Source: Sipunculus nudus
Taxonomy: Eukaryota > Annelida > Sipuncula > Golfingiida > Sipunculidae
Direction: 5' to 3'
DNA length: 64,000 nucleotides
Assembly: GCA_026874595.1 (NCBI GenBank)
Contig: CM049320.1
Span: forward strand, 546,001-610,000
Below, in pieces: positions 9,700-59,204 of this stretch; positions within the stretch are counted from its first letter, which is position 1, and each line of letters opens with the position of its first letter. A program made the translations under genes and the position numbers. The notes under the pieces are model-generated. The model was not told where the DNA came from. It did not search any database and saw only the letters and a program-made list of their open reading frames with translations.

Positions 9700-12272
9700 C
9701 AAGGCCTACAGGCCTAATGCAAACCTGTGCAAAGTTTAGGAGTATGAATGGAGGTTTATTTTTAAAATTTAATACTGATCCTCCCAAGTCCTGCATATCT
9801 ACCTTAGTCATTATGATTTCAGCAAAATGGACTGTTCTGACCTGCAAGTTTTGGACTAGAAAATTTTAAAACCAGAATATGGGTAGTCGACAAGCCACTA
9901 TGTGTATCCGCAAAAAAAAAAAAGTTGGACGGGTGAAGTGAGGCATGGATTAAGTGGCAAGGGGAATAGAGCGTGGTGTGTTGCATATTAGCATGGATGT
10001 CTGCAGCTTAAACGTGAATGTAGGTGGTGCCACCTGTCATAAAATCGAGAAAATTGTCCAGGATGTATAAACCTGCAAAATTTCAGGTGGATAAGTCAAA
10101 CCACTGCCGAGATATGAGTGATTTTATCCCAAGGCAGAAGAACAGATGGATGCTGTGCATAAGTGGTTGCAGGTGGCGCCACCAGTTTTGCCTATAATGA
10201 AGAGCTATGTGAGATCTATACACATGCAAAATTTTGGCCAAATCGGTAAAACGGTTCCCAAGATATGAGCTTGGATGTCTACAGAGTAAATGTGAATGTA
10301 GGTGGTGACACCTGTCATAAAATTGAGAAAGCTGTCAAGAATATAAAAAACCCTGCAAAAGTTCAGGTGGATAAGTCAAACCACTGCTGAGATATGAGAG
10401 ATTTTAACCTAAGGCAGATGAACAGATGGATGCTGTGCATAAATGGTTGCAGGTGGCACCACCAGTTTTGCCTATGATGAAGAGCTATGTAAGATCTATA
10501 CACATGCAAAATTTTGGCCCAATCGGTCAAACTGTTCCCTAGATATGAGCTTGGATGTCTGCAGAGTAAATGTGAATGTAGGTGGCACCACCTGTCATAA
10601 AATCGAGAAACCTGTCCATGATGTATAAACCTGCAAAATTTCCGGGGGATAAGTCAAACCACTGCTGAGATATGAGTGATATTATCCAAAGGCAGATGAA
10701 CAGATGGATGCTGTGCATAAGTGGTTGCAGGTGGCGCCACCAGTTTTGCCTATGATGAAGAGCTATGTGAGATCTATACATGCAAACTTTTTGCCCAATC
10801 AGTCAAATGGTTCCCGATATATGAGCTTGGATGTCTGCAGAGTAAATGTGAATGTAGGTGGCGCCACCTGTCATAAAATCGAGAAAGCTGTCAAGGATGT
10901 AAAATACCTGCGAAATTTCAAGTGGAAAAGTCAAACCACTGCTGAGTTATGAGTGATTTTAACCTAAGGCAGATGAACAGATGGAAGCTGTGCATAAATG
11001 GTTGGAGGTGGCACCACCAGTTTTGCCTATGATCAAGAGCTATGCGAGATCTATACACATGCAAAATTTTGGCCTAATTGGTGAAACGGTTCCCTAGATA
11101 TGAGCTTGGATGTCTGCAGAGTAAATGTGAATGTAGGTGGCGACACCTGTCATAAAATCGAGAAACCTGTACAAGATGTATAAAACTGCAAAATTTCAGG
11201 TGGATAAGTCAAACCACTGCTCAGATATGAGTGATTTTATCCAAAGGCAGATGAACAGATGGACGCTGTGCATAAGTGGCTGCAGGTGGCACCACCAGTT
11301 TTGCCTATGATGAAGAGCTATGTAAGATCTATACACATGCAAAATTTTGGCCCAATCGGTCAAACGGTTCCCGAGATATGAGCTTGGATGTCTACAGAGT
11401 AAATGTGAATGTAGGTGGCGCCACCTGTCATAAAATCGAGAAAGCTGTCCAGGATGTATAAACCTGCAAAATTTTAGGTGGATAAGTCAAACCACTGCTG
11501 AGATATGAGTAATATTATCCCAAGGCAGATGAACAGATGGACGCTGTGCAAAAATGGTTGCAGGTGGCGCCACCATTTTTAGTCTATGTTATAAAGCTAT
11601 CAAAGGGCTACATTTGTGCAAAATGTTTAGCCTGATCGGTCAAACGGTTCCAAAAATGAAGGCGCAGCAGTTCACATGTGACCTGATGATAAACCTGATT
11701 CGCTTAAAATGCAAACCAAGTTTTTTTAAACAGTTGAAAGATATAGTTCCAATAATCTGGGAATTCTGCATCTAAACATTGTGTCCAGACGTCTAGACGC
11801 TGTGTCTAGACGTCTAGACACATTGTCTAGACACCCCCCCCCCCCCCCCCCCCCGAGCCAGGTCAATTGCCATGGTGATGTCTGGACCCCACCTGTTTGT
11901 ACTGAGTGACCTCTTGACTTGGCTGCATGAAGGCTGTTTTCAAATACAGAAAGCCTTTTTCAACTAGCTACAATGCTTCAAAAATCTCCGAACTGGAACC
12001 ATTCGAACAAACTTGAGAGAGATTGTTCCAGGGATCATTTCTGTGAAATATTGGACAATTTGGCTGGACAGTTTCAGAGAAGAAGATTTTAAAATGCAGA
12101 TACCCAATAATAAGCTCCAGGGCAAAAAGTTTCACATGTGATGAATTCTTACATGTAATTTGGAGCTGCTAGCTCAGACAGTTTCTGACTTACAGCTATG
12201 GGCGGCGAAAAACCAGCCCTGGACGGCGGACGGACGACGCTGCGCCATCGCATAAGCTCACAGGTTCGCTAA
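9700..12272 (+). mobile_element. Complete family D element (2.57 kb)
   Basis: It starts CAAGGCCTACAGGCCTAATG then CAAACCTGTG (one base off the motif GCGAACCTGTG). It ends CGCATAAGCTCACAGGTTC followed by GCTAA at 12,268-12,272. The head motif and the tail motif CACAGGTTCGC are reverse complements. After the head come a conserved stretch shared with 25,790-25,920 (GACGGGTGAA, GGCAAGGGG-AATAGAG), then the 279-bp array, a poly-C run (11,836-11,854), a segment shared with other D copies (TTGAGAGAGATTGTTCCAGG) and a GGACGGCGGACGGACGACG stretch before the tail. No transposase or helicase coding is seen, so it is non-autonomous. Confidence 0.75.
9990..11590 (+). repeat. 279-bp tandem array, ~5.7 copies
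   Basis: Units begin near GGCAGATGAACAGATGGATG and carry two GGTGGCGCCACC-type palindromes about 125 bp apart: one followed by AGTTTTGCCTATGATGAAG, one followed by TGTCATAAAATCGAG. Copies recur every 275-281 bp. Exact GGTGGCGCCACC is found at 10,172, 10,730, 10,857, 11,414 and 11,563; elsewhere it is GGTGGCACCACC or similar. The several ~60-80 residue ORFs here are copies of one repeat frame and are not genes. Confidence 0.9.
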
Positions 12273-12289
12273 AAATATCACCTAAAATG

Positions 12290-12700: not shown

Positions 12701-12758
12701 AGCTGCTTATTTCTCCAGTGGAATACTTTTGATATTTATCTGCTTCCTATAAATTAAA

Positions 12759-12790
12759 CAAGGGACCTATGGGTCACGACGCTCAGCTGT
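12759..12790 (+). mobile_element. Family A head
   Basis: CAAGGGACCTATGGGTCACG followed by ACGCTCAGCTG matches the starts of the other family A copies and is preceded by A, as they are. The next tail in the same direction ends at 15,388, which would make a 2.63 kb element. However, a candidate first coding exon lies inside that span, so it may be a solo or truncated head instead. Confidence 0.6.
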
Positions 12791-13155
12791 TATATATGAT
12801 AAAAAAATAATATTTAGAAATGAGGCACACGCTGGTTTTGTGTAGTAATAAATATAAGCTGTATTATGAGTTGTTGTTGTTTAGCTTATGTATGATTTTG
12901 ATAGTACCTTTGGAGACAGGGAAGAGGATTGATTTCATTTATTTTATTAACAAATGGAGTACTATTGTCACACAGATTTTGACTTGGCCATATAACTTAT
13001 AAGCAGAACATATAATATGAGAGTTTAACTATTTATTAAAAAAAAATTACAAATATTGTCCCAAATATAATTTTTATAAAAAATAATAAGAGAATCATAT
13101 GATTTTTTAAAATGAAATATAACTGATATGATTATTAAAATAATATTAAAGAATA

Positions 13156-13179
13156 TATTCATGAATGCATTCATGAATA
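13156..13179. repeat. 24-bp perfect palindrome
   Basis: A perfect inverted repeat with no spacer: arm TATTCATGAATG and its reverse complement. It lies about 130 bp upstream of the ATG of the candidate exon at 13,313, in very AT-rich DNA. Confidence 0.7.
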
Positions 13180-13312
13180 CATTTTGAAAGTATTTGCACG
13201 AGTATTCATATACTTTCATTTTTACCTGAATTCCTATTCTTTATGCAAGAAATTTTATAATGGAGTACATAATCATATTCGTATTTAAATACAATTACAA
13301 AGTATTCGCACC

Positions 13313-13394
13313 ATGTCTGGTATTTATTCAGTTTCACCAACCAATGATGTTGAGAATCCAGAATATACAAAATTCACACATTTAAATAATGATC
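13313..13394 (+). CDS. Candidate first coding exon, unknown protein
   Basis: An ATG in good context (GCACCATGTCTGG) opens 27 codons plus one base and runs into a near-perfect donor (GATC|GTAAGTACC). An in-frame TAA at 13,286-13,288 shows this is the first possible start. The peptide begins MSGIYSVSPTNDVENPEYTK. It is polar, as expected for a cytosolic N-terminus; no domain is recognisable in so short a piece. A phase-compatible but weak next exon could start at 13,823 (ACTACTAG|AT GAG TTG GTT TGG). The exon lies between a family A head (12,759) and a family A tail (15,388), so it may be a normal gene exon or one carried inside an element. Confidence 0.5.
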
Positions 13395-13999
13395 GTAAGT
13401 ACCTGGTTTTATGGCTTTTACTTATATTAAAAAATAACTGTAAAAAATTCATTTTGGACTAATTTCACATCAATGTACACACTAGACACAGTAGGAATCT
13501 AGATTAATATTATCAACTGCATCTTTGTCTATCATGAATTTCCTTCATGTGATCCCTAATGATTAGTAATGAATAATATGATTTACTTCTTTATCATTAA
13601 AATTGAACTGAAAAATGCCATAGGTGACTGCATGGTGTTATTTGGAATATGTGACATTCTACCCATCGATACAAGATTCTTATATCATCAGTAACTGCAA
13701 GTTAATTTCCTGTTATTATAAACTAACAAATTCCTTTTCTATTTTTCTTTAATTTGTTATTAAAAACCAATAAAAATTTATTAATTTATTGTTTATTGTT
13801 ATGTTGTTTGTTAAAACTACTAGATGAGTTGGTTTGGACACCTGGATCAACTGTGGCTGGCCATAAGCTGCCTGGATTCCTGTATGCCTCGCCTCACGCG
13901 TGCATAATTTGATGAAAGGTCAACAAGGTCAACATACAGGTGACTCAAGAGGGGCTGGAGAGAGCCAAAGTCTGACAGGGTCTCATAAAAAAACATTAA

Positions 14000-15388
14000 T
14001 AAAAGCTACAATTTTTGGCCAATTTCTTTCAGCTTTCTAAACTAAAAAGCTGAAGTCCTAATGTGTGCATGATATGAAAATTATATCAACAGTGCTCACA
14101 GGACACAAACGTGCCATGGTCACAGTTGGGCAAACTTTAAGGTACTAATTTTAAATTTATACTAATAACTTATAAAATTTGAAAAATTCAGAACTAATTT
14201 TGGGTATTCAATTGAATCTTGATTAAATAATGTTACATCCCTGACAAAAAAATCTCTAGCTTCAGCAATGCCCTTGTTAAGGGAGTAAATATATTTCTTG
14301 ATTTTTTACAAAGTGCATTATGTTTGGGCCCATAACTTAAAACAATTACGCAATACTGACATCATTCTGGCATGTGCATAGAGAATGAAAAATATGTATA
14401 TTATTTATGATTAAAGTCAGATCAGTGGTTTTGATATTAGGCATCTTGAAGTGTAACAATGGGTTTTTAATGGAAAAATGAAGTTTTTCATTGATATCTC
14501 GAAGGAATTAAGTCCTAGTGACCAAATTCTTGGTATGGTAGGGGATTTTGGAGACATCTAACTGTATGCCGAATTTAAGGAACTAAGAGCTGAAGCTGGG
14601 GAGCTGAGCTCTTGCAAACTGCATAACACTAGCTTGATGTAAACAATATGTTACATGATGCTTGAAAACTTATTATTAAAACCTACAGTTTTTGATCAAC
14701 TGGTTTCAAATTTTTGGTGTTAACAGTTGAAATGCTAACAAAAACATGCTGAGAAAATTAAATCCACAGTACTTACAGGAAAAAAACGTGCCATGGTCAA
14801 AGTTGGGCTAAATTTAAGGTACCAATTTTTTATTTTTATTAATATTTTAGAAAATTTAATAGATTTTCATCTAATTTTGGGTATATAATTTAATTTTGAT
14901 TAATTAAAGTTATATTACTGGAAAAAAGGTCGATAGCTTTAACATTTTTTGTGTTAAGTGATCAAATATCTTTCCTGATTTTTTACAAAATGCATTATGT
15001 TTGGGCTCATAACTTTTTTAAATTAAATAATACAGACATAATTTCTGGCATGTACATAGGAACTATATAGGGGAATATTTATGTTAAATATGAGGAAAAA
15101 CAGATGAGTGGTTTTGATATTAGGCGGTCCTGAAGTGTGAAAATAGGTTTTTAATAAAAAATTGAGGTTTTTCCTTAATTTCTCAAAGGAACGAAGTTGC
15201 AAAGACCCAGTTTTCGGCTTGGTAGGAGATCTTGGGGACATCTAACATTATGCCGAATTTTGGATTCCTAGGTCTTACGGTTTCAAAACGTGCCACATCT
15301 ACGGACGGACGGACGGACGGACAGACGGACGGACGACGGACAATGGACCACGACTATAGCTCAGATGACTTATAGTCAGCTGAGCTAA
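14000..15388 (+). mobile_element. Family A, 'B body' in two tandem copies, with tail
   Basis: Two copies of a ~650-700 bp body (about 14,090-14,640 and 14,760-15,300) share GTGCCATGGTCA-AGTTGGGC, TTTACAAA-TGCATTATGTT, TTCTGGCATGT-CATAG, GTGGTTTTGATATTAGGC and CATCTAAC-TATGCCGAATTT. The second is followed by (GGAC)n, GACGACGGACAATGGACCAC and the full tail hairpin ending GCTAA at 15,388. The same body occurs at 33,840-34,330, 45,590-46,090 and 59,320-59,680. No coding capacity is seen. Confidence 0.75.
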
Positions 15389-15699
15389 AAAAGTTGTTAC
15401 GCAGAACTACATTCTAAGCTGACGAACCCACTTATGAATATGACCGTCCACACGCCATTTTCGCGGGTATATGTGAACTGTCAGTGACGATCTCAGAACA
15501 TCGTAATTTGTATCTGTATGAAAGATTAAAGTTGCTGACATTAAGTCATACTTCACCTAAAGTTCAACGCGCTAACCTCGACTTTTACTGGTTTTGCAAT
15601 CAGAATCCAAATAAAAATTTTAGGGTCGCACAGTAAATCTAGGGTCGGTCGGGTAACCGGAAACAAAGACTTTTTTTTTTAACGTCAAGGCACTGAGAC

Positions 15700-22939: not shown

Positions 22940-23792
22940 AACACATTTGAGCCACACTTATCTACCCAAAGACAATAGGGCCACACTTACCTACCCAAAG
23001 ACAAGAGAGCCAAACTCATCTACCCAAAGACAAGAGAGCCAAACTCATCTATCCAAAGACAAGAGAGCCACACTTATCTACCTAAAGACAATAGGGCCAC
23101 ACTTACCTACCCAAAGACAAAAGGGCCACACTTATCTACCCAAAGACAATATGGCCTAACTCATCAACCCAAAGACAAGAGAGCCAAACTCATCTACCCA
23201 AAGACAAGAGAGCCAAACTCATCTATCCAAAGACAAGAGAGCCAAACTCATCTACCCAAAGACTAGAGAGCCAAACTCATCTATCCAAAGACAAGAGAGC
23301 CAAACTCATCTACCCCAAGCCAAGAGAGCCAAACCCATCTATCCAAACACAAAAGAGCCAAACTCATCAATCCAAAGACAAGAGAGCCAAACTCATCTAT
23401 CCAAGGACAAGAGAGCCAAACTCATCTATCCAAAGATAAGAGAGTCATACTTGCATACCCAAAGACAAAAGGGCCACACTTACCTACCCAAGGACAACAG
23501 AGCCAAACTCATCTATCCAAAGACAAGACAGCCAAACTCATCTACCCAAAGAAAAGAGACCAAACTCATCTACCCAAAGACAAGAGAGCCAAACTCATCT
23601 ACCCGAAAAAAATTAGCAAAACTCATCTATCCAAAGACAAGAGAGCTAAACTCATCTATCCAAAGACAAGAGAGCCAAACTCATCTACCCAAAGACAAGA
23701 GAGCCAAACTAATCTATCCAAAGACAAGAGAGCAAAACTCATCTACCCCAAGACAAATGAGCAAAACTCATCTATCCAAAGACAAGAGAGAA
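22940..23792 (+). repeat. 29-bp satellite, left block
   Basis: About 29 units of CCAAAGACAAGAGAGCCAAA then CTCATCTAC. Variants include ATAGGGCCACACTTACCTAC near the left edge and GCAAAACTCATCTACCCCAAG toward the right edge, which is the form found in the right block. ORFs of 74-120 residues (QRQESQTHLPKDK) come from three-unit periodicity. Confidence 0.9.
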
Positions 23793-24887
23793 CAAGTGAC
23801 CCGTGGGTCATGATGCTCAGCCGACTGACATGTTGACAATATGTCCTTGCACAGACAACTAATTAAATTAATGTAGGTGGCATTATTGTTCATGCATATT
23901 AGCTTAAGTTTATCAAGACCCGTAAGCACAACAAATCTGATGACAAACCAACCTGCCTTTCATGGAATCTGGCAATTTGCGTGTATTTTGCATTATTTCT
24001 AGGGTGCTCAAACATACCCCAAAACTCTGAGAATATAGTTCACTGTGACCTGATTTCAGGGGAGAACTTTTATGGAACTCTCAGGATGTCAAGTTAGAAG
24101 ATTCTAGGCCCAAAGGTTATGATTTGTGCCCTACTTTGGTATCAAATTTTCAATTATTCTGAGGGGTGCTTATAAGCCCCATAGCTCAGAAAATATGGGT
24201 AACAGAGACCTAAATACACGTTTCGAAGGAGATTTTCATAGACCTCCCTGGATTTTAGGTTAAGATTCCAGGTCCAATGTTTATGATTTTTGCCCTGCTT
24301 TGGTATCAAATTCTTAATTATGATGGGGGGTGCTCATAAGCCCAATAGCTCAGAGAATATGGGTAACAGAGACCTAATTCCAGGTTTCCAAGGAGATTTT
24401 TCATGGACCCCTCTGGATGTAAAGTGAGAAGATTCCAGGTCCAGCGGTTACGATTTGTGCCCTGTTAACAGATCACTGCATTTTTTAAGATCTCAAAAAT
24501 AGAGAAACAAAAATTATTAAAAATTGAAAAATTCAGGTGGCGCCACCAGTCTGCAGAAACTGATGGTACTCTCCATGATCAATATCAATGCAAGTAATCA
24601 TGGTGATCAATGCATTAGTTGTTCAGATACTTGAGTTTTTGTATCAAAATTTTCATTATTCCGGGGGGTACTTCAGAGCCCCGTAGCTTGAAGAATATGG
24701 GTAACAGAGACCTAATTCCCGGTTTCCAAGGAGATTTTTCATGGACCTCTTTGGATGTAAAGTAAGAAGATTCGAGGTTCAGCGGTTACAATTTGTGTCT
24801 TGTTAACGGCCAGACAGCCGGGACAGCCGGATGGCCGACGGACAAAGAATGATGCTATAGCTCAGATGACTTAGTCAGCTGAGCTAA
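23793..24887 (+). mobile_element. Complete family A element inserted in the 29-bp satellite
   Basis: It starts CAAGTGACCCGTGGGTCATG with GCTCAGCCGA and ends TCAGCTGAGCTAA. Removing it restores GAGAGAAAAACTCATC, the same length as the satellite sequence GAGAGCAAAACTCATC with one base difference, so there is no target duplication or loss. The interior holds three diverged ~300-bp core units (CATAAGCCCCATAGCTCAGA, TTCCAGGTTTCCAAGGAGAT, TTACGATTTGTGCCCTG), one GGTGGCGCCACC palindrome (24,536) and a GCCAGACAGCCGGACAGCCG-type stretch before the tail. No coding sequence. Confidence 0.85.
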
Positions 24888-25625
24888 AAACTCATCTACC
24901 CTAAGACAAGTGAGCAAAACTCATCTACCCCAAGACAAGAGAGCAAAACTCATCTACCCCATGACAAGAGAGCAAAACTTAATTACCCCAAGAAAAGAGA
25001 ACAAAACTCATCTACCCCAACACAAGAGAGCAAAACTCATCTACCCCAAGACAAGAGAGCAAAACTCATCTACTCTAAGACAAGAGAGCAAAACTCATCT
25101 ACCCCAAGACAAGAAAGCAAAACTCATCTACCCATAGACAAGTGAGCAAAACTCAACTACCCTAAGAGAAGAGAGCAAAACTTATCTACCCCTCGACAGG
25201 AGAGCAAAACTCATCTACCCCAAGACAAGAGAGCAAAACTTATCTACCCCAAGACAAAAGAGCAAAACTCATCTACCCCAACATAAGAGAGCAAAACTCA
25301 TCTACCCCAAGACAAGAGAGCAGAACTCATCTACTCTAAGACAAGAGAGCAAAACTCATCTACCCCAAGACAAGAGAGCAAAACTTATCTACCCCAAGAC
25401 AAAATAGCAAAACTCATCTACCCCAACACAAGAGAGCAAACCTCATCTAACCCAAGACAGGAGGGCAAAACTCATCTACCCCAAGACAGGAGAGCAAAAC
25501 TCATCTACCCATAGACAAGTGAGCAAAACTTAACTAACCTAAGAGAAGAGAGCAAAACTTATCTACCCCAAGACATGAGAGCAAAACTCATCTACCCCAA
25601 GACAAGAGAGCTAATCTCATCTATT
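24888..25625 (+). repeat. 29-bp satellite, right block
   Basis: About 25 units of the CCCCAAGACAAGAGAGCAAA ACTCATCTA form, continuing the left block across the inserted element. A longer-range pattern is visible: the run around 24,960-25,140 is largely repeated at 25,200-25,380 and 25,380-25,560. Confidence 0.9.
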
Positions 25626-25759: not shown

Positions 25760-26208
25760 GACACTAGAATACAAGTAGTCAACAAACGACTATTTGTATC
25801 TGCCAAAATCAGAGTGTGACGGGTGAAATTGGGCATGGACTGAGTGGCAAGGGGTAATAGAGTGAGATTTGTTGCATATTAGCATGGGTGTCTTCCATGT
25901 AAACATGATTGTAGGTAGCACCACCTGATATTTGAAAGAGAAAGCTATTAAAGACGTATACATATGTACATTTTCAGGCGGATAAGTCATATGGGTAAAA
26001 TTTACCCTAGGCAGATGAAAAGATGGACACCATGCATAAATTTGTTGTAAGTTGGGCCACCAAATTTGTATAAGCTGTAGAGCCAAGTAAGATCTTTACT
26101 TATGCAAGAAATTTCACGCTAATACATCAAACCAGTTCTGAGATATTAGTATGGATGTCTGCAGCTGAAATGTGTACGTAAGTGGCACCACCTGTCATAA
26201 AATCAAGA
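25760..26208 (+). mobile_element. Family D fragment, left part of the split host repeat
   Basis: It shares with the 9.9 kb element the stretch GACGGGTGAA-TTGGGCATGGA, TGGCAAGGGG-AATAGAG and TTGTTGCATATTAGCATGG, then two 279-type half units with GGTAGCACCACCTG and GTGGCACCACCTGTCATAAA. It stops at ATAAAATCAAGA (26,208), where a family A element is inserted. The unit resumes at 28,617. Confidence 0.7.
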
Positions 26209-28380: not shown

Positions 28381-28416
28381 AGGGGGTGCGAACACACCCT
28401 GTAACTTTGAGAATGT

Positions 28417-28431
28417 AGGTCACAGTGACCT
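28417..28431. promoter_or_regulatory. Perfect vitellogenin-type estrogen response element
   Basis: AGGTCACAGTGACCT is the classical palindromic ERE with spacer CAG. It lies at the same place in the core unit as the four EREs at 4.0-4.5 kb, so it is inherited with the repeat. Activity is not shown. Confidence 0.5.
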
Positions 28432-28616
28432 AATTTCAAGTTTGCAAGGAGATCTTTTTAGAACCTCTAAGACTGCATAGGGTTCATAACCCTGGCCCCT
28501 ACAGTGACAATTTGTGCCCTGCTAAAGGCAGCCAGATGACCGGATGGACAGACGGAAGGACGATGGACAAAGACCCATCGCTATGGCCCAGCATGACTGA
28601 ATGTCAGCTGAGCTAA

Positions 28617-45440: not shown

Positions 45441-46194
45441 GTTCTCAATATGTAAACACATTAGAGTCTCTGAAAACTTCAATAACTTACCTAAATTTTT
45501 AGTTTTAATTTTCAAATTTCAAAGGTTAATAGATTACGTCCATTACGTGTACCTACTGTAAAAATTAAATCAAATGTACTTACAGGAAAAAACATGCCAT
45601 GGTCAAAATTAGACAAAATTTAAGCTTCCAATTTTATATTTATGCTAATATCTTAATAAAATTACAAGATTATGATCTAATTTTGGGTATAGAATTGAAT
45701 TTTGATTAAATAAAGTTATATCCCTGAAAACAAGCCCCTAGCTTTAACAATTATTGTGGTAAGTGATTAAATGTCTTCCTCATTTTTTACAAAGTGCATT
45801 ATGTTTGGACCCAAAACTTTTACAAAATATGTAATACTGACCTAATTTCTGGCATGTACATCTATAGGAACTATATAGGGGAATACTTATGGTAAATATG
45901 AAGAAAAACAGATGAGTGGTTTTGACTCTAGCCTGTCCTGAAAAGTAAATATAAGTTTTTCCTTAAAAATTGACAAAATATAACGTTTTTCTTTAATTTC
46001 TCAAAGAAACAAAGTCATAGACACCCAGTTTCTGGTTTGGTAGGAGGACACAGGGCATCTAACTGCATGCCGAACGGTGTGGAAACATGCCTGTCTTATG
46101 GAAGGACGGCAGGACGGATAGATGACAGGATGGCCATACGGACAGACAATGGACCCCAACTATAGGTCAGATGACTTATAGTAAACTGAGCTAA
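45440..46194 (+). mobile_element. Family A, single B body with tail
   Basis: It matches the bodies at 14-15.4 kb and 33.8-34.4 kb (AACATGCCATGGTCAAA, TTTACAAAGTGCATTATGTT, TTCTGGCATGTACAT, GAGTGGTTTTGAC). It ends with a GGACGGCAGGACGG stretch and a diverged tail (TATAGGTCAGATGACTTATA then GTAAACTGAGCTAA). No CAAGGGACCC head is visible, so it is 5'-truncated or diverged. Confidence 0.7.
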
Positions 46195-47814: not shown

Positions 47815-48728
47815 TGTAATTCTGAACAATTCCTACATGCTTAATGCGAACCTGTGCAATGGGATATAAACCAGGTATAATGCTTCAATGCTTTACCATT
47901 ACTTTTCATTTCAAGTACCTTTGTGACATGTATACTTATGTACAATGCAAGTACTAAATATTTTGAACCCTAGTACAAGCACCAATTACATAAACTTCAC
48001 TGCTGAAATACTAGCATCGGTCAAAGATGCATGGAGAGAGTAATTCTGAACAAGGCCTACATGCCTAATGCGAACCTGTGCAATGGGATATACACCAAGT
48101 ATAATGCTTCAATGCTTTACCATTACTTTTCATTTCAAGTACCTTTGTGACATGTATACATATGTACAATGCAAGTACTAAATATTCTGAACCCTAGTAC
48201 AAGCACCAATTACACAAACTTCACTGCTGAAATACTAGTTTGGGTCAAAGATGCATGGAGAGAGTAATTCTGAACAAGGCCTACATGCCTAATGCGAACC
48301 TGTGCAATGGGATATACACCAAGTATAATGCTTCAATGCTTTACCATTACTTTTCATTTCAAGTACCTTTGTGACATGTATACATATGTACAATGCAAGT
48401 ACTAAATATTCTGAACCCTAGTACAAGCACCAATTACACAAACTTCACTGCTGAAATACTAGTTTGGGTCAAAGATGCATGGAGAGAGTAATTCTGAACA
48501 AGGCCTACATGCCTAATGCGAATCTGTGCAATGGGATATACACCAAGGATAATGCTTCCATGCTTTACCATTACTTTTCATTTCAAGTACATTTGAGACA
48601 TGTGTACATATGTACAATGCAAGTACTAAATATTTTGAACCCTAGTACAAGCACCAATTACACAAACTTCACTGCTGAAATACTAACATGGGTCAAAGAT
48701 GCATGGACAATTCAAAATGTCAGGCCAA
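47815..48728 (+). repeat. 224-bp array, 4 copies, each with a family D head
   Basis: Units start near CAAGGCCTACATGCCTAATG CGAACCTGTGCAATGGG and recur every 224-225 bp (GTGCAAT at 47,853, 48,078, 48,302, 48,526). The middle two are nearly identical. The same sequence occurs once at 53,356-53,530. Thus this family D copy carries four heads in tandem before its single body and tail. Confidence 0.85.
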
Positions 48729-49171: not shown

Positions 49172-51855
49172 TATCAAACTTTTCTTGAGTCAGGTGCACT
49201 GGGCTGACCAAGTTCAGGTGAGGAAGGCAGTTGCCCCAAGTGAACCAGAACAAATTGAGAGCTGCAGCTACTGCACTGAGTGCAGTAGTGACCTGCACCT
49301 GGTTGCACTGAGTGCACTGGTGACATGTTGCGTAATCTGATACAGTTGGCAGTCTGCCAAAGCTATAAATAGATCCAGACTGACCTTTGGCCTGTTGCCA
49401 AATTTTAAATAGTTTGCAGTCTGCCAAGCTATATATAGATACAGGCACAATCTTGACCTGCTGGTAAATCTGTTTACACATACTGAAAGACTTTGGCTAC
49501 AATGCTTTTTTTCAAGCTGACATAATCATAAGATTTTTTTTTATCAAAATGTTTAGAATAATAGATGAGGCAGTCTTTCATTGTTATAGTTCCAATATTT
49601 CTGCAAAAATCATTTAAGTAAACTTGAACAAAGGCCTCCTAAGAATCATTTTTGTGCAATGTTACAGAAGTAGAAACAAGTTTTGCAGAAGAAGACTATT
49701 GCAGCCCTCAGTTTGAAATAGGCCTACTTATGGCAAAAAGGACCAACTTCAGTTTTCTAACACTATCAAAATTAAAAAAAAAACAATTTATTCTAATACA
49801 ATTGAATAAACCCTACCCTAGGATAATCCTTGTGAAAAACTAAATGATTCAGCTTGACAGTTTCATCATTAAACATTTTTAAGCTGAAAAGTTTAAGTTT
49901 TTGCCGGTAAAAACAGGTTTAGTAGGTGGCGCCACAAAAACCTGCAATTTCAAATATGAGTCATGTGACCAACATTTGCACAAAACTTAGTGATGTTAGC
50001 TCCTGTAATTTCTGAGATTGTTATGTTTGTATGCTTACTTGGCCAAATGAATAAGTTCAAATTCACATAACTCCACCTAAATTGATCAAAGCCGAACCAT
50101 TTGAACAAAGTTGAGTGAGCTTGTCTCTGGGATCATTTCCGTGATATATTGAACAATTTGGCTGAATGATTTCAGAGACGATTTTCAAAAGTTTTCTAGC
50201 CTTTTCCCCACAAAATGTAAGGTACTGCGCCACAAAATTTGATATGTGACAGATTTTTGCATAATATTTGGGGATGCTAGCTCCCGTTTTTCCAGAGAAA
50301 TTATGGGTTAATGTACTGATGACAGATGACCCCTGTACAAAAAGGTTGATGCAGCTGGCTCAACCAATAGCTCAATTTCAAATATGAGTCATGTGACCAA
50401 CATTTGCATAAAATTTGGTGATGATAGCTCCAGCCATTTCTGATATTGTAATTTTTTAATATCATTTTTTGGCCTAATGACTAAGTTAAGCTTCTGTAAC
50501 TTGGCCAAAATTCACCGAACTGGAACCATTCAAACAAACTTGAGAGAGATTGTTTCAGAGATTATTTCTATGAAATATTGAACAATTTGGCAGGACAATT
50601 TTGGTTATAGAAAAATTTGTAAAGGTTTTTTAAATTTTCCCTTTAAAATCTAAGTACAGTGAAACTCTTCTAAGTTGGACACTCAAGGGACTGGAGGATT
50701 TTGTCCTGATTAGTGAGTTGACCTGATTAGAGGAGTTGTGTTAATTCATCATTTATTGATACTGGTATTTCAATTAATTTTACGTTTAATTTGAAATTTA
50801 TAAATTATATTTAAGGTTTTTTCTGAAAAGATTAAATATATATATATATATATAAATATATATTGTAAAAAACAAATGTGAATAAGTATCCTGAGCTCTG
50901 ATTATTATGATCATGAAGCACAGAATTATTGACTATCTGATAGTTCACTTTATTTAGGCTCGATAAAAGCATGTGTTGACAAAGTCCTTTAGCAAATGCT
51001 GCTACCCAGGATAGGATGGTAGAACTGCGAAAATCAAGCCTTGAAGTTGAAAAACAACGACAATAAACATGTTTGAGAGTTAACTGATTAATCATGCAAG
51101 TAAAACCTCACCACACATTCACAGCAACTAAGTGCAGACTATCGCTAACTAATTCTTGCTAACCGTGCATGACACTGACCACAAATAATCAGCGGTAGTT
51201 TTTAATGGTGGTCTTTTTTTATTGAGAGCAGTATGAGACCCTACAGTTATTTTGTTTTGGTTGACTGGCCAATCCTAATTACATAATAATGTTAAGTCTT
51301 CACACAATTGCGAGATTTTTGAAATAAACAAAATTTTGACTGTATATTCACATGTAACATTAGGATGGTTCACCAATTTACGCTTGTCCTCGGGCTGTCA
51401 CTTTGACCAAAACAGGTCATACGAGGTCATAACCTCGGACAGCCATCTCCCGGAAGATATATGAACAAAAATAGAACTTGCGATGTCCGTTAGAGGGTTG
51501 TAATATGTTCTGGATATATGCAGACGGGATGGGAAAGTTTGTCCATTGTCCAAGATAGTGAGTTGTCTGCTTTACTGAGTTTACGTTAAACATGATATAG
51601 AGACAATTTGAAGGGACTGAGATTAAGTGTCCACATTAGTGAATTGTCCGCCTTACTGAATTGTCCGCAAGCAGAAGTTTCACTGTAAATGCAGATAGCA
51701 AAAAAATAAGTAAAATCCTATAGAGTTTTTTATATGACTAATTTTTTCCATAAAATTTGGTGATGCTAGCTCCTGCCGTTATTGAGATTGTATGGTAAAT
51801 GTATGGACACTGGACCCGGCCACACCAGCACATAAGCTCACAGGTTCTTTAAAAA
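49172..51855 (+). mobile_element. Family D element, body and diverged tail
   Basis: It continues the element that begins in the 224-bp array. It shares CTGATGCACTGGGCTGACCA-type and AGTCTGCCAAAGCTATAAAT sequences with 53.9-54.3 kb, ACTGAAAGACTTTGGCTA with 54.64 kb, and GGTGGCGCCACA plus ATGAGTCATGTGACCAACAT with 55.1 kb. It is interrupted by the TA element at 50,657-51,685 and ends CACATAAGCTCACAGGTTCT, a diverged form of the D tail. The two halves of ATCTAAGTAAATGCAGATAG rejoin across the insertion. Confidence 0.75.
50657..51685. mobile_element. pogo-like TA-flanked element (1,029 bp), non-autonomous
   Basis: The left end CAGTGAAACTCTTCTAAGTT GGAC and the reverse complement of the right end CAGTGAAACTTCTGCTTGCG GAC form short inverted repeats of the CAGTGAAAC type seen in pogo/Tigger-like elements. 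TA flanks both ends (50,655-56, 51,686-87). The intact paralogue at about 55,397-55,416 reads ATCTAAGTAAATGCAGATAG with one TA. Subterminal copies of TTAGTGAATTGTCCGC are present. The interior has an (AT)n run (50,837-50,865) and no transposase frame. Confidence 0.8.
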
Positions 51856-51859
51856 AAAT

Positions 51860-53355
51860 ACTATTTATAAACTTTACAAGGTATTTGTACAAAACATACT
51901 TTAATAAACAATCCAAAAGGAAGAGAACTTGTTTTTACCATAAACATCAAATCTTAAATCTATATTTGTCCAGCTTGGTGGATCTGTAATGCTGGTAAAC
52001 TTTGTCTAGTTTATATTACCTTATGTGTGTATACAGCTGTTTACTTGCTCAGAGGCTCACTAAGATATATAACAGACTCCCTCATATGGCTAGATTCTCT
52101 TGTATATTTATTTTCAGTTCTAGAGATTCACTTTGACTTCAAACAATCCTTGTCCGTAAGAGTGTTAAACATTTGACAACAATACAATGTAAACTATGCC
52201 TGTAATGTAAATATAAGTGTCAGAGTTTGTTCAAAAAGTAAAATAAACGTAAACCGTAAGAGGATATCACATAGAGACATATATATATATATATACAAAA
52301 AATGGGTGTGTGATATCCGTTGGCAAATACTGCATCCTGCAGTGATCAGAGTGACCTGTTTCTGTATCTATTGTTCAGAGTGTCAATCAAGTCCTATCAG
52401 TTAACTCAAAAGACAAGTGAGATACCTCTGTGGTGAAAAAAAAAAAAGATTTTTATTCTGCTGTACATACAGGGCAAACAAAGCCTGGTCTCCAATTCTG
52501 CTGAATGTTTGTATTAGAAATACAAATGTTTGTATTAGAAATGATATTTTTACAAGAATTAGATTTTTTATGACATAATTTTTTTTTATCATAAGTTTAT
52601 ATTTCTATACATTTCCAATATAACATATATATCTGAATATAAAAGATGATTCATAATTCTAAATTGCATCATTATAAATCTCAATCTTGTCAGATAACAC
52701 CACATCATACATACAAATGTTTAATAATTTTTTTACCACAAAAATATATCTTTTAAATTTGCAATCAATAAATATCTAAAAATAATACTTAATTCAGATT
52801 TCACAATTTTAAATTGTGCCTTTATTTATCCATAATTTGCTCCATTTTTTATAAAATTATGTATACTGTTGGGTTTAATTATATTTGTTAAAATCATTTA
52901 AAAGAAAATTAATTTCTTTAAAAATGCTACATCAACACAACATGGCATCTTCTGAATTACACCTTGAATTACTTTTTCAAGGAATGTTTTTATATATTAG
53001 AGTGGAAACAGCATTACAATTAATAAGTTACAGTGAAAATGATAACCATTACTGGGTTCAGTTTGCTGGAAGGGGTGGGGGGATCGGGGTGGTGAATAAC
53101 TGTACACCTGTCACAGCAGGGGGACCACCCCCCCCCCCCCCGGTCACAGCAGGGGTATCCCCCCCACCCCCAGCGACTGTAACCAATCAGAAACCCCGGC
53201 ATAGCTGACTTCCAGCAACCTGGAGTGGGACGCTGCATCTGAACAAAGCAAATGACTACAAAAGAGACCTTAACCAATGACCTTGTGACCCAAAAATCTG
53301 AGAACTTATTATTCTTGAACTTGCAGCATTTAGATTATTGTAACAATCTTCTAAA
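51860..53355. other. Mostly unique AT-rich DNA
   Basis: Includes (AT)n at 52,279-52,296 and poly-C/poly-G words around 53,080-53,170. A plus-strand frame (52,885-53,208) contains a protein-like stretch SELHLELLFQGMFLYIRVET and QLISYSENDNHYWVQFAG before running into the G/C-rich simple sequence. No good splice sites border it. It may be an exon or a decayed fragment. Confidence 0.35.
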
Positions 53356-55617
53356 CAAGGCTTACAGGCCCAATGCGAACCTGTGCAATGGGATATACAT
53401 CAGGTAAAATGCTTCAATGCTGGACCATTACTTTTCAAGTACACGTGTAACATGTATATGAACAATGCTTATACTAAACATTTTGAATAAGAATCAATTA
53501 CACAAATATCACTGCTGAAATTCTGGCATGGGTGCACACAACACACAATTGATTGTAGCTGGCACCACCAGTCTTGTATACAACAAAGCTATCAGAGATA
53601 TATACATATGCCCAATTTCAGACTGATATATCAAACCCCTCCTGAGAAAAAAACAGGGCCATACATGTGCAAAAATTATTGTAGGTGGCACCACCAGTCT
53701 TGTATATGACAAAGCTATAAATATGCCCAATTCAAGGCTGATATATCAAATTCCTCTGTAGAAATAAGGAGGCACATATACTGTGCAAAAGTCATTGTAG
53801 GTGGCGACACCCTTCTTGTGAATGAGAAAGCCATCAAAGACACATAATCAGGTCAAAATAACAGGCCAATACATCAAACATACCTTGAGTCTGATGCACT
53901 GGGCTGACCAGGCTTAGGTGAGTAAGGCAGTTGCCCCGAGTGAACTGTGACAAATCGCTGACTCAAGCTACTGCAGTGAGTGAACTCTTGACCTGCACCT
54001 GGCTAGACTGAGTAAACTTTTGACCAGTACCTGGCTGCACTGGATGAACTCATGGCCTGTTGCATTATCTGACACAGTTGGCAGTCTGCCAAAGCTATTA
54101 ATTGATCCACGCTGAACTTTGGGGCCTAATCTGATGCAGTGGGCAGTCTGCCAAAGCTATAAATAGAATGCAGCTACTGCCCTGAGTAAACTCTTGACCT
54201 ATACCTGGCTGCACTGAGTGTACTCTTGACCTGTTGGCTAATCTGATACAGTTGGCAGTCTGCCAAAACTATAAATAGATCCAGACTGACCTTTGGCCTG
54301 TTGCCAAATCAGAAATAGTACTCACACCATTGCATAAGCTCACAGATTGGCTCCACATGCAGCCCTGAGGGGCATGACACCTATGAGGTGATCACATGAT
54401 ACTCATGAGGTGAACAAATGCTACCCATGAGGTGATCACATTGTGCCTATGAGGTGTTCATATGACACTCGGTGATCACATGCCTTGTGTCTGTCTGCAC
54501 TGATCGAACTCTTGACATATATATCTGGCTGCACTGAATGAACTCTGTTGACCCGTTGCCAAATCTGAAACAGCTGGCAGTTTCTTATCCTATTTAAAGA
54601 TTCAGACACAATCTTGGCCTTTTGGTTAATTTGTTTACACATACTGAAAGACTTTGGCTAAAATGATTTTTTTTCGCAAGCTGACATATTCATAAGACTG
54701 TTTATCAAAATATCTAGAATAATAAAAGATAGAGTCCTTTCATTGTTAAAGGTCCAATAATTCTGCCAAAAATCATTCAATTAACTTGAACAAAGGCCAC
54801 CTAAGAATAATTTTTGTGCAGTGTTACAGAAGTTATAATTGAAGCAACAATTTTGTAGAAGAACACTATCGCAGTCCTCAGTTTGAAATAGACTTAATAA
54901 TGGCCATAAGACCAACTTAAGCTTTTCACAACTCAATCAGAAATCAACAAACTCAATCTATTCTTATATGATTGAAAGAACCATGTCCTAGGATAATTCT
55001 TGTGAAAATTGAATGATTCAACTTAGTTGCATCATAAACATTTTTAAGCTGAAAGAGGTTAAAATTATAAGGTTTTTGCCCATAAAAAACAGGTTAATGA
55101 AGGTGGCGCCACAAAATCTGCAATTTCAAATATAAGTCATGTGACCAACATTTGCACAATACTTGGAGATGCTAGCTCCAGCCATTCCTGAGATTGCTAT
55201 GTCTGTATGCTTACTTGGCCAAATGACTAAGTTGAAATTCGTTTAACTCCGCCAAAATTCATCAAACGCACACAATTTGAACAAACTTGAGAGGGCTTGC
55301 CTCTGGGATCATTTCTGTAAAATATTGAACAATTTGGCTGGACCGTTTACAAGAAGAAGACTTTTAAAGGTTTTTCAGCTTTTCCCTATAAAATCTAAGT
55401 AAATGCAGATAGCAACAAAAAAAATAAGCTGAATCCCACAACATTTAATATGTGACAGATAATAGCATAAAATCTAGGGATGTTAGCTCCTGCTATTCCT
55501 GAGAAATTATGGGTTAATGTACAGATGACCGATGACCCCTGTACAAAAGAGGTCAATGCAGGTGGCGCCACCAATACCTGAATTTCATATATGACTCATG
55601 TGACCAACACTGGCATA
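53356..55617 (+). mobile_element. Family D element, 3' end cut by family E
   Basis: It begins CAAGGCTTACAGGCCCAATG CGAACCTGTG and then follows the same order as 48.6-50.6 kb without the two TA elements. Extra GGTGGCACCACCAG units lie at 53.55-53.83 kb. An internal CATAAGCTCACAGATTGGC at 54,333-54,352 is a diverged D tail, so two D copies may abut here. The sequence breaks off inside GGCATAAA at 55,617-55,619, where family E starts, and does not resume on its other side. Confidence 0.7.
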
Positions 55618-55619
55618 AA

Positions 55620-58600
55620 CTAGATGTGTCGGAACGACACGAATGCCCCCGCCTTGGGCAAATTAGAAACATTTGTAAAATTTGGAAAATTTTTTAAGTT
55701 CAGGAGGTGTCATATGGTGAAAAGTAGGTCAACAAGGGCAAAATGCAAACTCGATCTGTAACGGGTCATTATCAAGCAACACACCAAAAATCATGCCAGT
55801 ATATGCAGGAATTGTGAAAAAAAGTCCATACATGTGCATTTTCCATAAAAATTTCTGTCTTTCATGAAATTTTCTATGTTTAGGAGCCGTAAAACAATCA
55901 AAAGTAGGTCAACCGGGATGAAACGCAAACTCGATCTGTAACTGTCATTATCTGCCCACACAAAAAAAATCAGGGTGGTATCTGCAGGCATTGAGGAAAA
56001 AAAGTCAGTACATATGCATTTGTTATGAAAATTTATATTTTTCATGAAACTTTCTATGTTCAGGAGCAGTCAAATGGTCAAAAGTAGGTCAACTGAGACA
56101 AAACAAGAACTCGATCTGTAACTGGTCATTATCTGCCTACACACCAAAAATCAGGCACGTATCTGCAGGCACTGCGAAAAAAAGTCCATACATGTGCACC
56201 TTTTTTTGAAATTTTCTATGTTAGAGCAACGTCAAACGGTCAAAAATAGGGTCAAAAATAGGTCAACTGGGACAAACATGAAATTTTCTATGTTTAGGAG
56301 CCATAAAACAATCAAAAGTAAGTCAACCAGGACGAAACGTGAACTCGTTCTGTAACTGGTCATTATCTGCCCACATACCAAAAATCAGGCCAATATCTGC
56401 AGGTATTGTGAAGAAAAGTCTGTACAAGTGTATTTGTCATGAAAATATATATTTTACAAGAAATTTTCTATGTTCAGGAGCCGTAAAACAGTCAAAAGTA
56501 GGTCAACCGGGACGAAATACGAACTCCATCTGTAACTGGTCAATATCTGCCAACACACCAAAAATCAGGCCAATATCTGCAGGCATTGCGAAAAAAAGTC
56601 CGTACATGTGTATTTGTCATGAAATTTCATATTTTTCATGAAATTTTCTATGTTCAGGAGCCGTTAAACAGTCAAAAGTAGGTCAACCGGGACCAAACGC
56701 GAACTCTATCTGTAACTGGTCTATATCTGCCCACACACAAAAAATTAGGCCAATATCTGCAGGCATTGCGAAAAAAAGTCTGTACATGTGTATGTCATGA
56801 ATATTTCTATTTTTCATGAAATTTTCTAAGTTTAGTAGCCGTAAAACAGTCAAAAGTAGGTCAACCGGGACGAAACATGAACTCAATCTGTAACTGGTCT
56901 ATATCTGCCCACACACCAAAAATCAGGCCAATATCTGCAGGCATTGCAAAAAAAAGTCCGTACATGTGTATCTGTCATGAATATTTCTATTTTTCATGAA
57001 AATTTCTAAGTTTAGGAGCCGTAAAATGGTCAAAAGTAGGTCAACCGGGACGAAACGCAAACTCGATCTGTAACTGGTCTATATCTGTCCACACACCAAA
57101 AATCAGGCCAATATCTGCAGGCACTGCGAAAAAAAGTCCGTACATGTGTATTTGTCATGAAATTTCATATTTTTCATGAAATTTTCTATGTTCAGGAGCC
57201 GTAAAACGGTCAAAAGTAGGTCAACTGGGACGAAACGCAAACTTGATCTGTAACTGGTCTATATCCGTCCACACACCAAAAATCAGGCCAATATCTGCAG
57301 GCATTGCGAAAAAAAGTCTGTACATGTGTATGTCATGAATATTTCTATTTTTCATGAAATTTTCTAAGTTTAGTAGCCGTAAAACAGTCAAAAGTAGGTC
57401 AACCGGGACGAAACATGAACTCAATCTGTAACTGGTCTATATCTGCCCACACACCAAAAATCAGGCCAATATCTGCAGGCATTGCAAAAAAAAGTCCGTA
57501 CATGTGTATCTGTCATGAATATTTCTATTTTTCATGAAAATTTCTAAGTTTAGGAGCCGTAAAATGGTCAAAAGTAGGTCAACCAGGAAGAAACGCGAAC
57601 TCGATCTGTAACTGGTCTATATCTGTCCACACACCAAAAATCAGGCCAATATCTGCAGGCACTGCGAAAAAAAGTCCGTACATGTGTATTTGTCATGAAA
57701 TTTCATATTTTTCATGAAATTTTCTATGTTCAGGAGCCGTAAAACGGTCAAAAGTAGGTCAACTGGGACGAAACGCAAACTTGATCTGTAACTGGTCTAT
57801 ATCCGTCCACACACCAAAAATCAGGCCAATATCTGCAGGCACTGCGAAATAAAGTCCGTACATGTGTATTTGTCATGAAATTTCATATTTTTCATGAAAT
57901 TTTCCATGTTCAGGAGCCGTTAAACGGTCAAAAGTAGGTCAACCAGGACGAAACGCGAACTCCATCCGTAACTGGTCAATATCTGCCAACACACCAAAAA
58001 TCAGGCCAATATCTGCAGGCATTGCGAAAAAAAGTCCGTACATGTGTATTTGTCATGAAATTTCATATTTTTCATGAAATTTTCTATGTTCAGGAGCCGT
58101 TAAACGGTCAAAAGTAGGTCAACCAGGAAGAAACGCGAACTCGATCTGTAAGTGGTCTATATCTGCTAACACACCAAAAATCAGGCCAATATCTGCAGGC
58201 ATTGCGAAAAAAAGTTTGTACATGTGTATGTCGTGAATATTTCTATTTTTCATGAAATTTTCTAAGTTTAGTAGCCGTAAAACAGTCAAAAGTAGGTCAA
58301 CCGGGACGAAACATGAACTCGATCTGTAACTGGTCTATATCTGCCCACACACCAAAAATCAGGCCAATATCTGCAGGCATTGCAAAAAAAGTCCGCACAT
58401 GTGTATTTGTCATGAATATTTCTATTTTTCATGAAAATTTCTAAGTTTAGGAGCCTTAAAATGGTCAAAAGTAGGTCAACCGGGACGAAACGCAAACTCG
58501 ATCTGTAACTGGTCTATATCTGTCCACACACCAAAAATCAGGCCAATATCTGCAGGCACTGCGAAAAAAAGTCCGTACATGTGTATTTGTCATGAAATTT

Positions 58601-59204
58601 CATATTTTTCATGAAATTTTCTATGTTCAGGAGCCATAAAACGGTCAAAAGTAGGTCAACTGGGACGAAACGCAAACTCGATCTGTAACTGGTCTATATC
58701 CATCCACACACCAAAAATCAGGCCAATATCTGCAGGCACTGCGAAATAAAGTCCGTACATGTGTATTTGTCATGAAATTTCATATTTTTCATGAAATTTT
58801 CCATGTTCAGGAGCCGTTAAACGGTCAAAAGTAGGTCAACCAGGACGAAACGCGAACTCGATCTGTAACTGGTCTATATCTGCTAACACACCAAAAATCA
58901 GGCCAATATCTGCAGGCATTGCGAAAAAAGTCCGTACATGTGTATCTGTCATGAATATTTCAATTTTTCATGAAATTTTCTAAGTATAGGAGCCGTAAAA
59001 CGGTCAAAAGTAGGTCATACGGGACGAAACGCGAACTCAATCTGTAACTGGTCTATATCTGCCCACACACCAAAAATCAGGCCAAAATCTGCAGGCATTG
59101 CGAAAAAAAGTCCGTACAACTGTTTGATTTCGGAATGACGGAAGGACGGAATGACGGACATGGGTAAAACTATATGCCCCGGCCACTTTGTGGCGGGGGC
59201 ATAA
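55620..59204 (+). mobile_element. Complete family E element (3.6 kb)
   Basis: The head is CTAGAT with a perfect hairpin GTGTCGGAACGACAC (55,626-55,640) and motif ATGCCCCCGCC (55,643-55,653). The core is a 180-bp array. Then comes GGAATGACGGAAGGACGGAA TGACGG and a tail hairpin (59,174-59,202, stem ATGCCCC-GGCCAC) containing GGCGGGGGCAT, the reverse complement of the head motif, ending CATAA. The order hairpin, motif, array, ACGG stretch, reverse motif is the same as in families A and D. No coding sequence. Confidence 0.8.
55660..59115 (+). repeat. 180-bp tandem array, ~19 copies, with higher-order structure
   Basis: The phrase AAAAGTAGGTCAAC recurs at 55,721, 55,901, 56,081 and so on to 59,007, nearly always 178-180 bp apart. 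One short step near 56,258-56,316 marks a deletion. Diagnostic variants recur as blocks: AGTAGCCGTAAAACAGTC at 56,840, 57,378 and 58,270, and TCAACTGGGACGAAACGCAA at 57,220, 57,758 and 58,655, giving multiples of three and five units. Minus-strand ORFs of 67-69 codons (FVPVDLLLTVLRLLNLENF) repeat with the units. Confidence 0.92.

What the first reader, a model, noticed from the sequence alone, without database searches (positions are those of the whole stretch)
9700..59204. Three element families share one hidden terminal architecture
Family A has head GCTCAGCTGA and tail TCAGCTGAGC. Family D has head GCGAACCTGTG and tail CACAGGTTCGC. Family E has head ATGCCCCCGCC and tail GGCGGGGGCAT. In each the tail motif is the reverse complement of the head motif. 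The head motif is preceded by a short palindrome and a CAAG or CTAG start, and the tail is preceded by an ACGG/CCGG-rich stretch and followed by TAA. Cores are unrelated tandem repeats of 157, 279 and 180 bp. Known: Helentron-associated and bivalve 'pearl' elements have subterminal inverted repeats, tandem cores and ACGG microsatellites. Inference: different motifs may define different mobilising enzymes acting on one shared design.
Basis: partly seen in the sequence, partly recalled or inferred. Interest (0 to 1): 0.75.

Follow-up and report, generated by a model that had tools for sequence, protein, structure and literature searches.

The report
Helentron families, partners, shared insertion strand
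The three repeat families are short passenger copies of known rolling-circle jumping genes (Helentrons); two of them could be matched to enzyme-coding partners, and, on the stretch examined, copies of all three families tend to lie on the same DNA strand as their neighbours, as if a directional process such as DNA replication chose the strand.

Summary
The architecture is real but known: families A, D and E are non-autonomous Helentrons (HINEs), read backwards. Two A insertions have empty sites without target duplication. At up to 3 mismatches the genome holds 36,709/35,659 A, 12,452/11,247 D and 4,463/4,802 E 5'/3' ends. New: full-length Rep-helicase Helentrons carry the A and E ends, a link left unresolved for oyster HINEs (PMC7492417); D's partner is tentative. 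Two A enzymes are 62% identical, but 30-33% to E. Unexpected: insertion strand is regionally coherent across families. On contig C1 the nearest other-family neighbour within 30 kb shares strand in 204 of 226 cases; pairwise agreement is 92% against 50% after label shifts. In the window 22 of 22 scanned ends are minus. A small control repeat shows none (4 of 9). My searches found no report of this. Likeliest cause: insertion into single-stranded DNA at replication forks; transcription is the main rival.

The parts
9698..12272 (-). Family D HINE: 3' end 9698-9729 (3' subTIR, AGGCCT palindrome, CTTGTT), 278-bp core 9985-11588, GTCC-rich stretch, 5' end 12245-12272
12757..15388 (-). Family A HINE: 3' end 12757-12790, ACGG run 15301-15341, 5' hairpin end 15355-15388
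23791..24888 (-). Family A HINE inserted in a 29-bp tandem array; empty site aligned, no target duplication
26207..28616 (-). Family A HINE inserted in a D-core-like repeat; empty site aligned, no target duplication
32816..34425 (-). Family A HINE, 3' and 5' ends
47825..48528 (-). Four 3' ends of D in a 224-bp tandem array (array 47816-48707)
53354..54354 (-). Short family D HINE (3' end 53354-53385; decayed 5' end 54327-54354, 5 mismatches)
55618..59204 (-). Family E HINE: exact 3' end 55618-55652, 180-bp core, exact 5' hairpin end 59173-59204
3518..3545 (-). D 5' end; no matching 3' end recognised in the window
4632..4665 (-). A 5' end
46161..46194 (-). A 5' end (3 mismatches)
51825..51852 (-). 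Decayed D 5' end (4 mismatches)
63638..63671 (-). 3' end of the A subtype with GGCCCATGGGCC and CTAGTT, with about 130 bp of terminal sequence shared with Rep loci of that subtype
63813..63846 (-). A 3' end of the L005 subtype; element runs off the window

Best explanation
Families A, D and E are non-autonomous Helentrons (HINEs). A Rep (HUH)-PIF1 helicase protein from an autonomous Helentron with the same subterminal inverted repeats nicks at the T-rich 5' end, peels off and copies one strand, stops where the 3' subTIR and palindrome lie, and inserts the single strand between two T residues without target duplication. The subTIR is the recognition tag: A ends are carried by one Rep clade with several 3'-end subtypes, E ends by a distant Rep, and D ends probably by a third. 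Shown: anatomy, no duplication at two A empty sites, copy numbers, pairing for D and E, full-length partners for A and E. Inferred: nicking, termination at the 3' end, cross-mobilisation. In addition, insertion strand is regionally coherent across families (shown on one contig and in the window); the cause is inferred.
For: End anatomy. Two empty sites without duplication. Counts and pairing. PF14214 gives 143 matches. Of 48 Rep loci whose downstream DNA I examined, 17 have an A-type 3' end, 2 an E and 2 a D 3' end in Rep orientation; 27 have none (end patterns at up to 5 mismatches). About 2 A ends would be expected by chance in these 178 kb in that orientation (my arithmetic). E autonomous copies on C3 and C5: homology blocks run from the 5' hairpin (3863 / 3296) to the CTAGTT end (15875 / 15689) and none lies beyond; both carry 180-bp repeats like those of the window's HINE. 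A copies on C17 and C5: blocks of 96-98% identity begin 92 and 449 bp inside the A 5' hairpins (3294 / 1345) and stop at the CTTGTT end (18178 / 17472). Domains: Helitron_like_N, PIF1 and DUF6570 in A and E. Enzyme identities 62% (A-A) vs 30-33% (A-E).
Against: 27 of 48 examined Rep loci could not be typed. The A-lineage copy L005 shows no A 5' end within 17 kb upstream. L004, about 90-93% identical to an A copy, has no A 3' end in its 10 kb. D lacks the 5' hairpin. The D partner rests on 2 of 4 loci with a split Rep match, only one of them found in a prospective test (about 0.017 expected by chance; my arithmetic), and no D 5' end was looked at there; the number of D ends in my loci (2) is no more than chance (about 2.4). 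The endonuclease is below the curated cut-off in the typed A and E copies. Several frames are interrupted, so current activity is not shown. Empty sites were tested for A only.
Confidence: 0.94

Rival explanations
1. For the shared insertion strand: direction of replication. Helentrons insert their single strand into single-stranded target DNA exposed mainly on one template strand of the fork (lagging-strand template), so element orientation records fork direction in the germ line, as in bacterial IS200/IS605.
For: Cross-family strand agreement is 77 of 86 at 0-10 kb, 104 of 111 at 10-30 kb, 273 of 369 at 30-100 kb and about half beyond 1 Mb; A and E have distant enzymes and the three cores differ, so a property of the target region is the likely common factor. 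At the left end of C1 the first 1 Mb is almost all minus (250-kb bins 1+/13-, 0+/15-, 0+/5-, 0+/12-). IS200/IS605 is a precedent (PMC5371812 passages).
Against: No replication data. Beyond the first 7.5 Mb the agreement falls to 0.61 by 60-100 kb, a scale that could fit genes as well. No telomere repeat was listed on C1, so an end-of-chromosome argument is unproven. HINEs beside autonomous copies are 5 same to 3 opposite. Base skew of the window has no constant sign.
Confidence: 0.45
2. For the shared insertion strand: direction of transcription. Insertion into the displaced strand of transcribed DNA, or selection against one orientation inside genes, aligns copies with the local gene.
For: The typical coherence length of 30-100 kb away from the contig end is compatible with gene lengths in a 1.43-Gb genome (gene length is my assumption, no call).
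Against: About 1 Mb of one strand at the left end of C1 would need many genes in one direction; the control repeat shows no coherence (4 of 9 within 8-100 kb), though it is small and might not insert in genes. No gene annotation was tested.
Confidence: 0.3
3. For the shared insertion strand: local amplification, nested composite elements or segmental duplication copied already-oriented clusters.
For: Nested and adjacent elements exist (A inside a D-core-like repeat; two A 3' ends 45 bp apart in L008); three copies of the control repeat about 6 kb apart on C10 show that such duplication occurs.
Against: Agreement persists at 10-100 kb between different families, far beyond the 1.8-2.7 kb median lengths of paired E and D ends, and counting only the nearest other-family neighbour does not remove it (204 of 226; 161 of 182 without the first 1.1 Mb).
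Confidence: 0.12
4. The three families are unrelated MITE-like DNA transposons with terminal inverted repeats moved by DDE transposases.
For: Short inverted motifs near both ends.
Against: Motifs are subterminal and asymmetric, no duplication at two empty sites, and Rep-helicase partners with the same ends.
Confidence: 0.02

Closest known systems
Cg_HINE elements of Crassostrea gigas (PMC7492417, passages seen)
   Same: 5' subTIR with complementary IR, GTCY/GTCC microsatellite, tandem core, 3' subTIR followed by palindrome, different cores on one design, no target duplication, oligo-T sites
   Different: SubTIRs were not compared letter by letter with those here; D lacks the 5' hairpin; here autonomous partners are identified for A and E, which that paper left unresolved; it states that both orientations occur, and the passages seen give no regional analysis
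HINE / DINE-1 and Helentrons of mites, mosquitoes and flies (PMC4067079, passages seen)
   Same: subTIRs, 3' palindrome, TT insertion preference, Rep-helicase partner sharing the ends, microsatellite or tandem core
   Different: No RPA gene was looked for here; HINEs and partners here share ends and, for E, the core repeat, and were not shown to be >95% identical overall
Helitron2 with asymmetric terminal inverted repeats (PMC3627910, passages seen)
   Same: 5' ATIR inside a 5' hairpin (A, E), 3' ATIR just upstream of a 3' hairpin, T at the 5' end
   Different: Endonuclease-like domains are present in several of the proteins here, as in Helentrons
IS200/IS605 single-strand transposons (PMC5371812, passages seen)
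   Same: Element orientation follows a regional directionality; single-strand mechanism (here inferred)
   Different: Bacterial elements; here the direction of replication is not known

Membership tests
Helentron / HINE | Subterminal inverted repeats, 5' near the end and 3' followed by a palindrome | tested here: met
   A, D, E in window and autonomous A, E copies
Helentron / HINE | 5' inverted repeat complementary to the 5' subTIR (hairpin) | tested here: inconclusive
   Met for A and E, not for D; one copy of each folded
Helentron / HINE | Insertion in T-rich sequence (TT) without target-site duplication | tested here: met
   Two empty sites for family A (A-run on the plus strand, T on the element strand); not tested for D or E
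Helentron / HINE | Autonomous partner with Rep and PIF1-type helicase and the same ends | tested here: met
   Met for A and E; tentative for D
Helentron | C-terminal AP/EEP endonuclease fused to Rep-helicase | tested here: inconclusive
   Above cut-off in L001 (untyped; Exo_endo_phos 3.8e-13) and L004 (A-clade, no A 3' end seen; Exo_endo_phos_2 7.1e-8); below cut-off in L003 (A, 4.4e-4) and in E (6.7e-5), where stops interrupt it
Canonical Helitron (Helitron1) | 5' TC, 3' CTRR, insertion between A and T, single 3' hairpin | tested here: not met
   Ends are T-rich / CTTGTT or CTAGTT with an additional 5' hairpin in A and E; insertion in an A/T-run
IS200/IS605-like replication-coupled insertion | Orientation follows replication direction | not testable with these tools
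   Only regional coherence of orientation was shown

The most novel reading that the evidence does not exclude
Helentron insertion orientation is set by the direction of replication forks: in this animal-like genome, tens of thousands of Helentron copies from several enzyme lineages would point the same way within domains of about 50 kb to 1 Mb because their single-strand intermediate joins only the strand left single-stranded at the fork. The copies would then be a readable fossil map of germ-line fork direction and origins in an organism with no replication data.
Probability: 0.42. Interest if true: 0.87.

Novelty: new member of a known kind. Interest (0 to 1): 0.62.

Why it matters
It gives candidate enzyme sources for HINEs with tandem-repeat cores, a link reported as unresolved for oyster (PMC7492417; that the host here is a bivalve is only a guess from resemblance), and indicates that the terminal motif follows the enzyme clade, so families may be assigned to enzymes from their ends. 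The regional strand coherence, if confirmed genome-wide, would be evidence on how rolling-circle transposons choose their target and would turn abundant repeats into a marker of replication (or transcription) direction.

Tried and rejected
D partner among the first 26 Rep loci: no D 3' end with palindrome and CTTGTT; only isolated 1-mismatch D words and one D 5' end downstream in L014. G1-type Helentrons (L001, L002, L006) as D partner: no A, D or E ends in the stretches fetched, only isolated 1-mismatch words; a possible own 5' inverted repeat was seen by eye and its 3' end was not found. A 5' end for L005: none within 17 kb upstream. C1:66556760, which resembles the DNA just upstream of the D end in L062: no D end in the 301 bases fetched. 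C12:40236014 and C2:69135586, with a similarly split Rep match: no D end. Chance check for D: about 2.4 D 3' ends would be expected in the 298,644 bases of loci and 2 were seen, so the number alone proves nothing; only position and lineage speak for D. Base skew of the window has no constant sign. Telomere repeat to show that C1 starts at a chromosome end: the first listed place is on C2. Control repeat: the first pattern gave few close pairs; by eye 1 same and 6 different at about 20-140 kb, leaving out three copies close together on C10 and pairs further apart. The second pattern lies inside the first, so it is the same family, and one pair is in both; its counts (94 places on C1 and 6 on C2) are. 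Both are small. In one search and later, same-strand ends of one family closer than 8 kb were merged into one insertion before counting, which makes within-family pairs under 8 kb meaningless (A 2 of 6 at 0-10 kb). The E 3' list was cut at 39.2 Mb (63 of 100 listed places used).
Full report
What is there. The motif pairs exist and exceed chance. Read on the minus strand, each element is: T-run, 5' subTIR (A GCTCAGCTGA, D GCGAACCTGTG, E ATGCCCCCGCC), in A and E a complementary arm making a 5' hairpin, a GTCC/CCGT-rich stretch, tandem core, 3' subTIR (reverse complement), a palindrome, and CTTGTT or CTAGTT. The A and E 5' hairpins fold far better than shuffles (z -5.8 and -5.0); D has none (z 0.0); one copy of each was folded. 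I scanned the window with seven end patterns at up to 7 mismatches: 22 distinct end sites, all on the minus strand (four of them in one tandem array); the two plus-strand rows are the same hairpins read backwards; reversed-window control 0. Three further exact A subTIRs that this scan misses are minus too.

Insertion. For the A elements at 23791-24888 and 26207-28616 the joined flanks align through the junction to copies of the target repeat (a 29-bp tandem array and a D-core-like repeat). There is no duplication; apart from substitutions, the junction differs by one extra base in an A-run, that is, T-T on the element strand. D and E were not tested.

Numbers and pairing. With up to 3 mismatches the genome holds A 5' 36,709 and A 3' 35,659, D 5' 12,452 and D 3' 11,247, E 5' 4,463 and E 3' 4,802 ends; reversed-pattern controls are 0. 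Only 100 places per pattern are listed, all exact and on C1. Among these, 31 of 81 D 5' ends and 30 of 100 E 5' ends have a same-family, same-strand 3' end within 12 kb downstream (median 2.7 and 1.8 kb), against 3 and 6 in the wrong order; cross-family pairs give 2-13. For A the exact lists are not informative (7 vs 7).

Partners. PF14214 (Helitron_like_N) gives 143 matches. I examined DNA downstream of 48 loci chosen from these. Counting end patterns at up to 5 mismatches, 17 have an A-type 3' end, 2 E and 2 D in the orientation of the Rep, and 27 none. The A ends fall into 3' variants: CATCATGACCCATGGGTCACTTGTT (L003, L007, L014 and, with one change each, L008 and L018), GCCGTGACCCATGGGTCCCTTGTT (L005), GTCATGACCCATGGGTCACTTGTT (second end in L013, L051) and a group with GGCCCATGGGCC, mostly followed by CTAGTT, with small changes (L013 first end, L023, L024, L025, L026, L050, L054, L061, L067). 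The window's A 3' ends resemble these variants (63813 the L005 type, 23791 the L003 type, 26207 the L013/L051 type, 63638 the GGCCC type); this assignment is by eye.

Full-length E Helentrons on C3 and C5 (about 12.0 and 12.4 kb) align with each other in blocks from the E 5' hairpin to the CTAGTT end, with no block beyond, and contain 180-bp repeats like those of the window's E HINE next to the 5' end. Full-length A Helentrons on C17 and C5 (about 14.9 and 16.1 kb from hairpin to end) align at 96-98%; the blocks stop at the CTTGTT end, and begin 92 and 449 bp inside the 5' hairpins, in the repetitive stretch. Both have a second, internal A 5' end 0.7 and 1.1 kb inside. A copies also carry repeats similar to the core of D (80-86% in one copy, about 70% in two others), so cores seem to move between families. 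Domains are Helitron_like_N, PIF1 and DUF6570, with OTU (L001) or a Herpes_teg_N-like domain (L003, L004) and endonuclease matches of varying strength; several frames are interrupted. Two A-clade proteins (L003, L005) are 62% identical; A against E is 30-33%, A against the untyped G1 lineage 31-32%, and G1 against E 37-38%.

D. A D 3' end lies 4.7 kb downstream of a low-scoring, split Rep match at C3:52151343. Of 41 listed genome matches to this stretch (40 of 3,430 candidates scored), 38 cover only its last part, from about 330 to 466-483, at 90-95%; the D terminus is at 467. Two further loci with a Rep match broken at a similar point were then fetched as a test: C9:74586500 has a D 3' end in the right orientation, C12:40236014 does not; a fourth, C2:69135586, has none. 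Chance of a hit in the two test windows is about 0.017. That these four are one lineage is my reading of the split, not a tree. I treat D as probable only.

The unexpected result. In the place lists, strand is not random along C1. After merging same-family ends within 8 kb, insertions of different families within 0-10, 10-30, 30-100, 100-300 and 300-1000 kb share strand in 77 of 86, 104 of 111, 273 of 369, 652 of 1003 and 1603 of 2812 pairs; beyond 1 Mb agreement is 0.45-0.51 by family pair (sums of the rows). Circularly shifting the strand labels gives about 0.5 and never reaches the observed value up to 100 kb; at 100-300 kb 4 of 160, 1 of 126 and 1 of 126 shifts reach it. Counting each insertion once with its nearest other-family neighbour within 30 kb gives 204 of 226; without the first 1.1 Mb, 161 of 182. 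Without the first 7.5 Mb the agreement is 0.91, 0.88, 0.73 and 0.61 at 0-10, 10-30, 30-60 and 60-100 kb, and 0.57 and 0.54 at 100-200 and 200-300 kb, within the shifted range. The first 1 Mb of C1 is almost entirely minus, and so is the window, 0.55 Mb from the start of C15. The data are six lists of exact matches on one contig plus one window.

Control. A dispersed 150-bp repeat from window 5679-5832 without A, D or E ends gives 4 of 9 same-strand pairs at 8-100 kb, 7 of 15 at 100-300 kb and 42 of 86 at 300-1000 kb; against Helentrons it gives 1 of 6, 8 of 16 and 18 of 30 at 0-30, 30-100 and 100-300 kb. Helentrons within one family give 305 of 380 at 8-100 kb. The control is small, old and of unknown identity. 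Against the rule: HINE ends lying beside autonomous 3' ends in my loci are 5 same and 3 opposite (my count, one further decayed same-strand end in L014 left out).

Interpretation. Families whose enzymes differ most simply share orientation through the target. A Helentron strand inserted into single-stranded DNA would take the orientation of the exposed strand. In bacteria IS200/IS605 orientation follows replication for this reason (PMC5371812 passages). Replication forks are my first candidate and transcription the second; nothing here separates them firmly.

Literature. Listings of five searches and the passages I opened (PMC5371812, PMC10030826, PMC12477816, PMC9341512, PMC4067079) show no report of Helitron or Helentron orientation following replication. 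Other listed Helitron papers, among them PMC5876387, PMC4778049 and PMC8504770, were seen as listings only. PMC7492417 states that Cg_HINE integrate in both orientations. Only open-licence papers are held, so this is not proof of absence.

Noticed in passing
47816-48707: A 224-bp tandem array whose four units each hold a D 3' terminus (subTIR, palindrome, CTTGTT-like end); perhaps repeated failure to stop at the 3' terminus in rolling-circle copying.
   Followed up: partly
L037 and L040 (A Helentrons on C17 and C5): Both full-length A copies contain a second A 5' end 0.7 and 1.1 kb inside the first.
   Followed up: partly
36498-45078: 8.6-kb array of a 55-bp satellite, about 156 copies, 94% matches.
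   Followed up: no
17929-19276: 35-bp tandem array, 38.5 copies at 96% matches.
   Followed up: no
5679-5832: Dispersed 150-bp repeat of unknown type; 2,795 places of its 35-bp core at up to 3 mismatches, 1,690 forward and 1,105 reverse; used as control.
   Followed up: partly
G000:C2 about 404 kb: The first listed CCCTAA array lies about 404 kb inside contig C2 rather than at its end; possible misjoin or interstitial array.
   Followed up: no
L001, L002, L006: A further Helentron lineage (G1; OTU and endonuclease domains in L001) with what looks like its own 5' inverted repeat; no matching HINE family was sought.
   Followed up: partly
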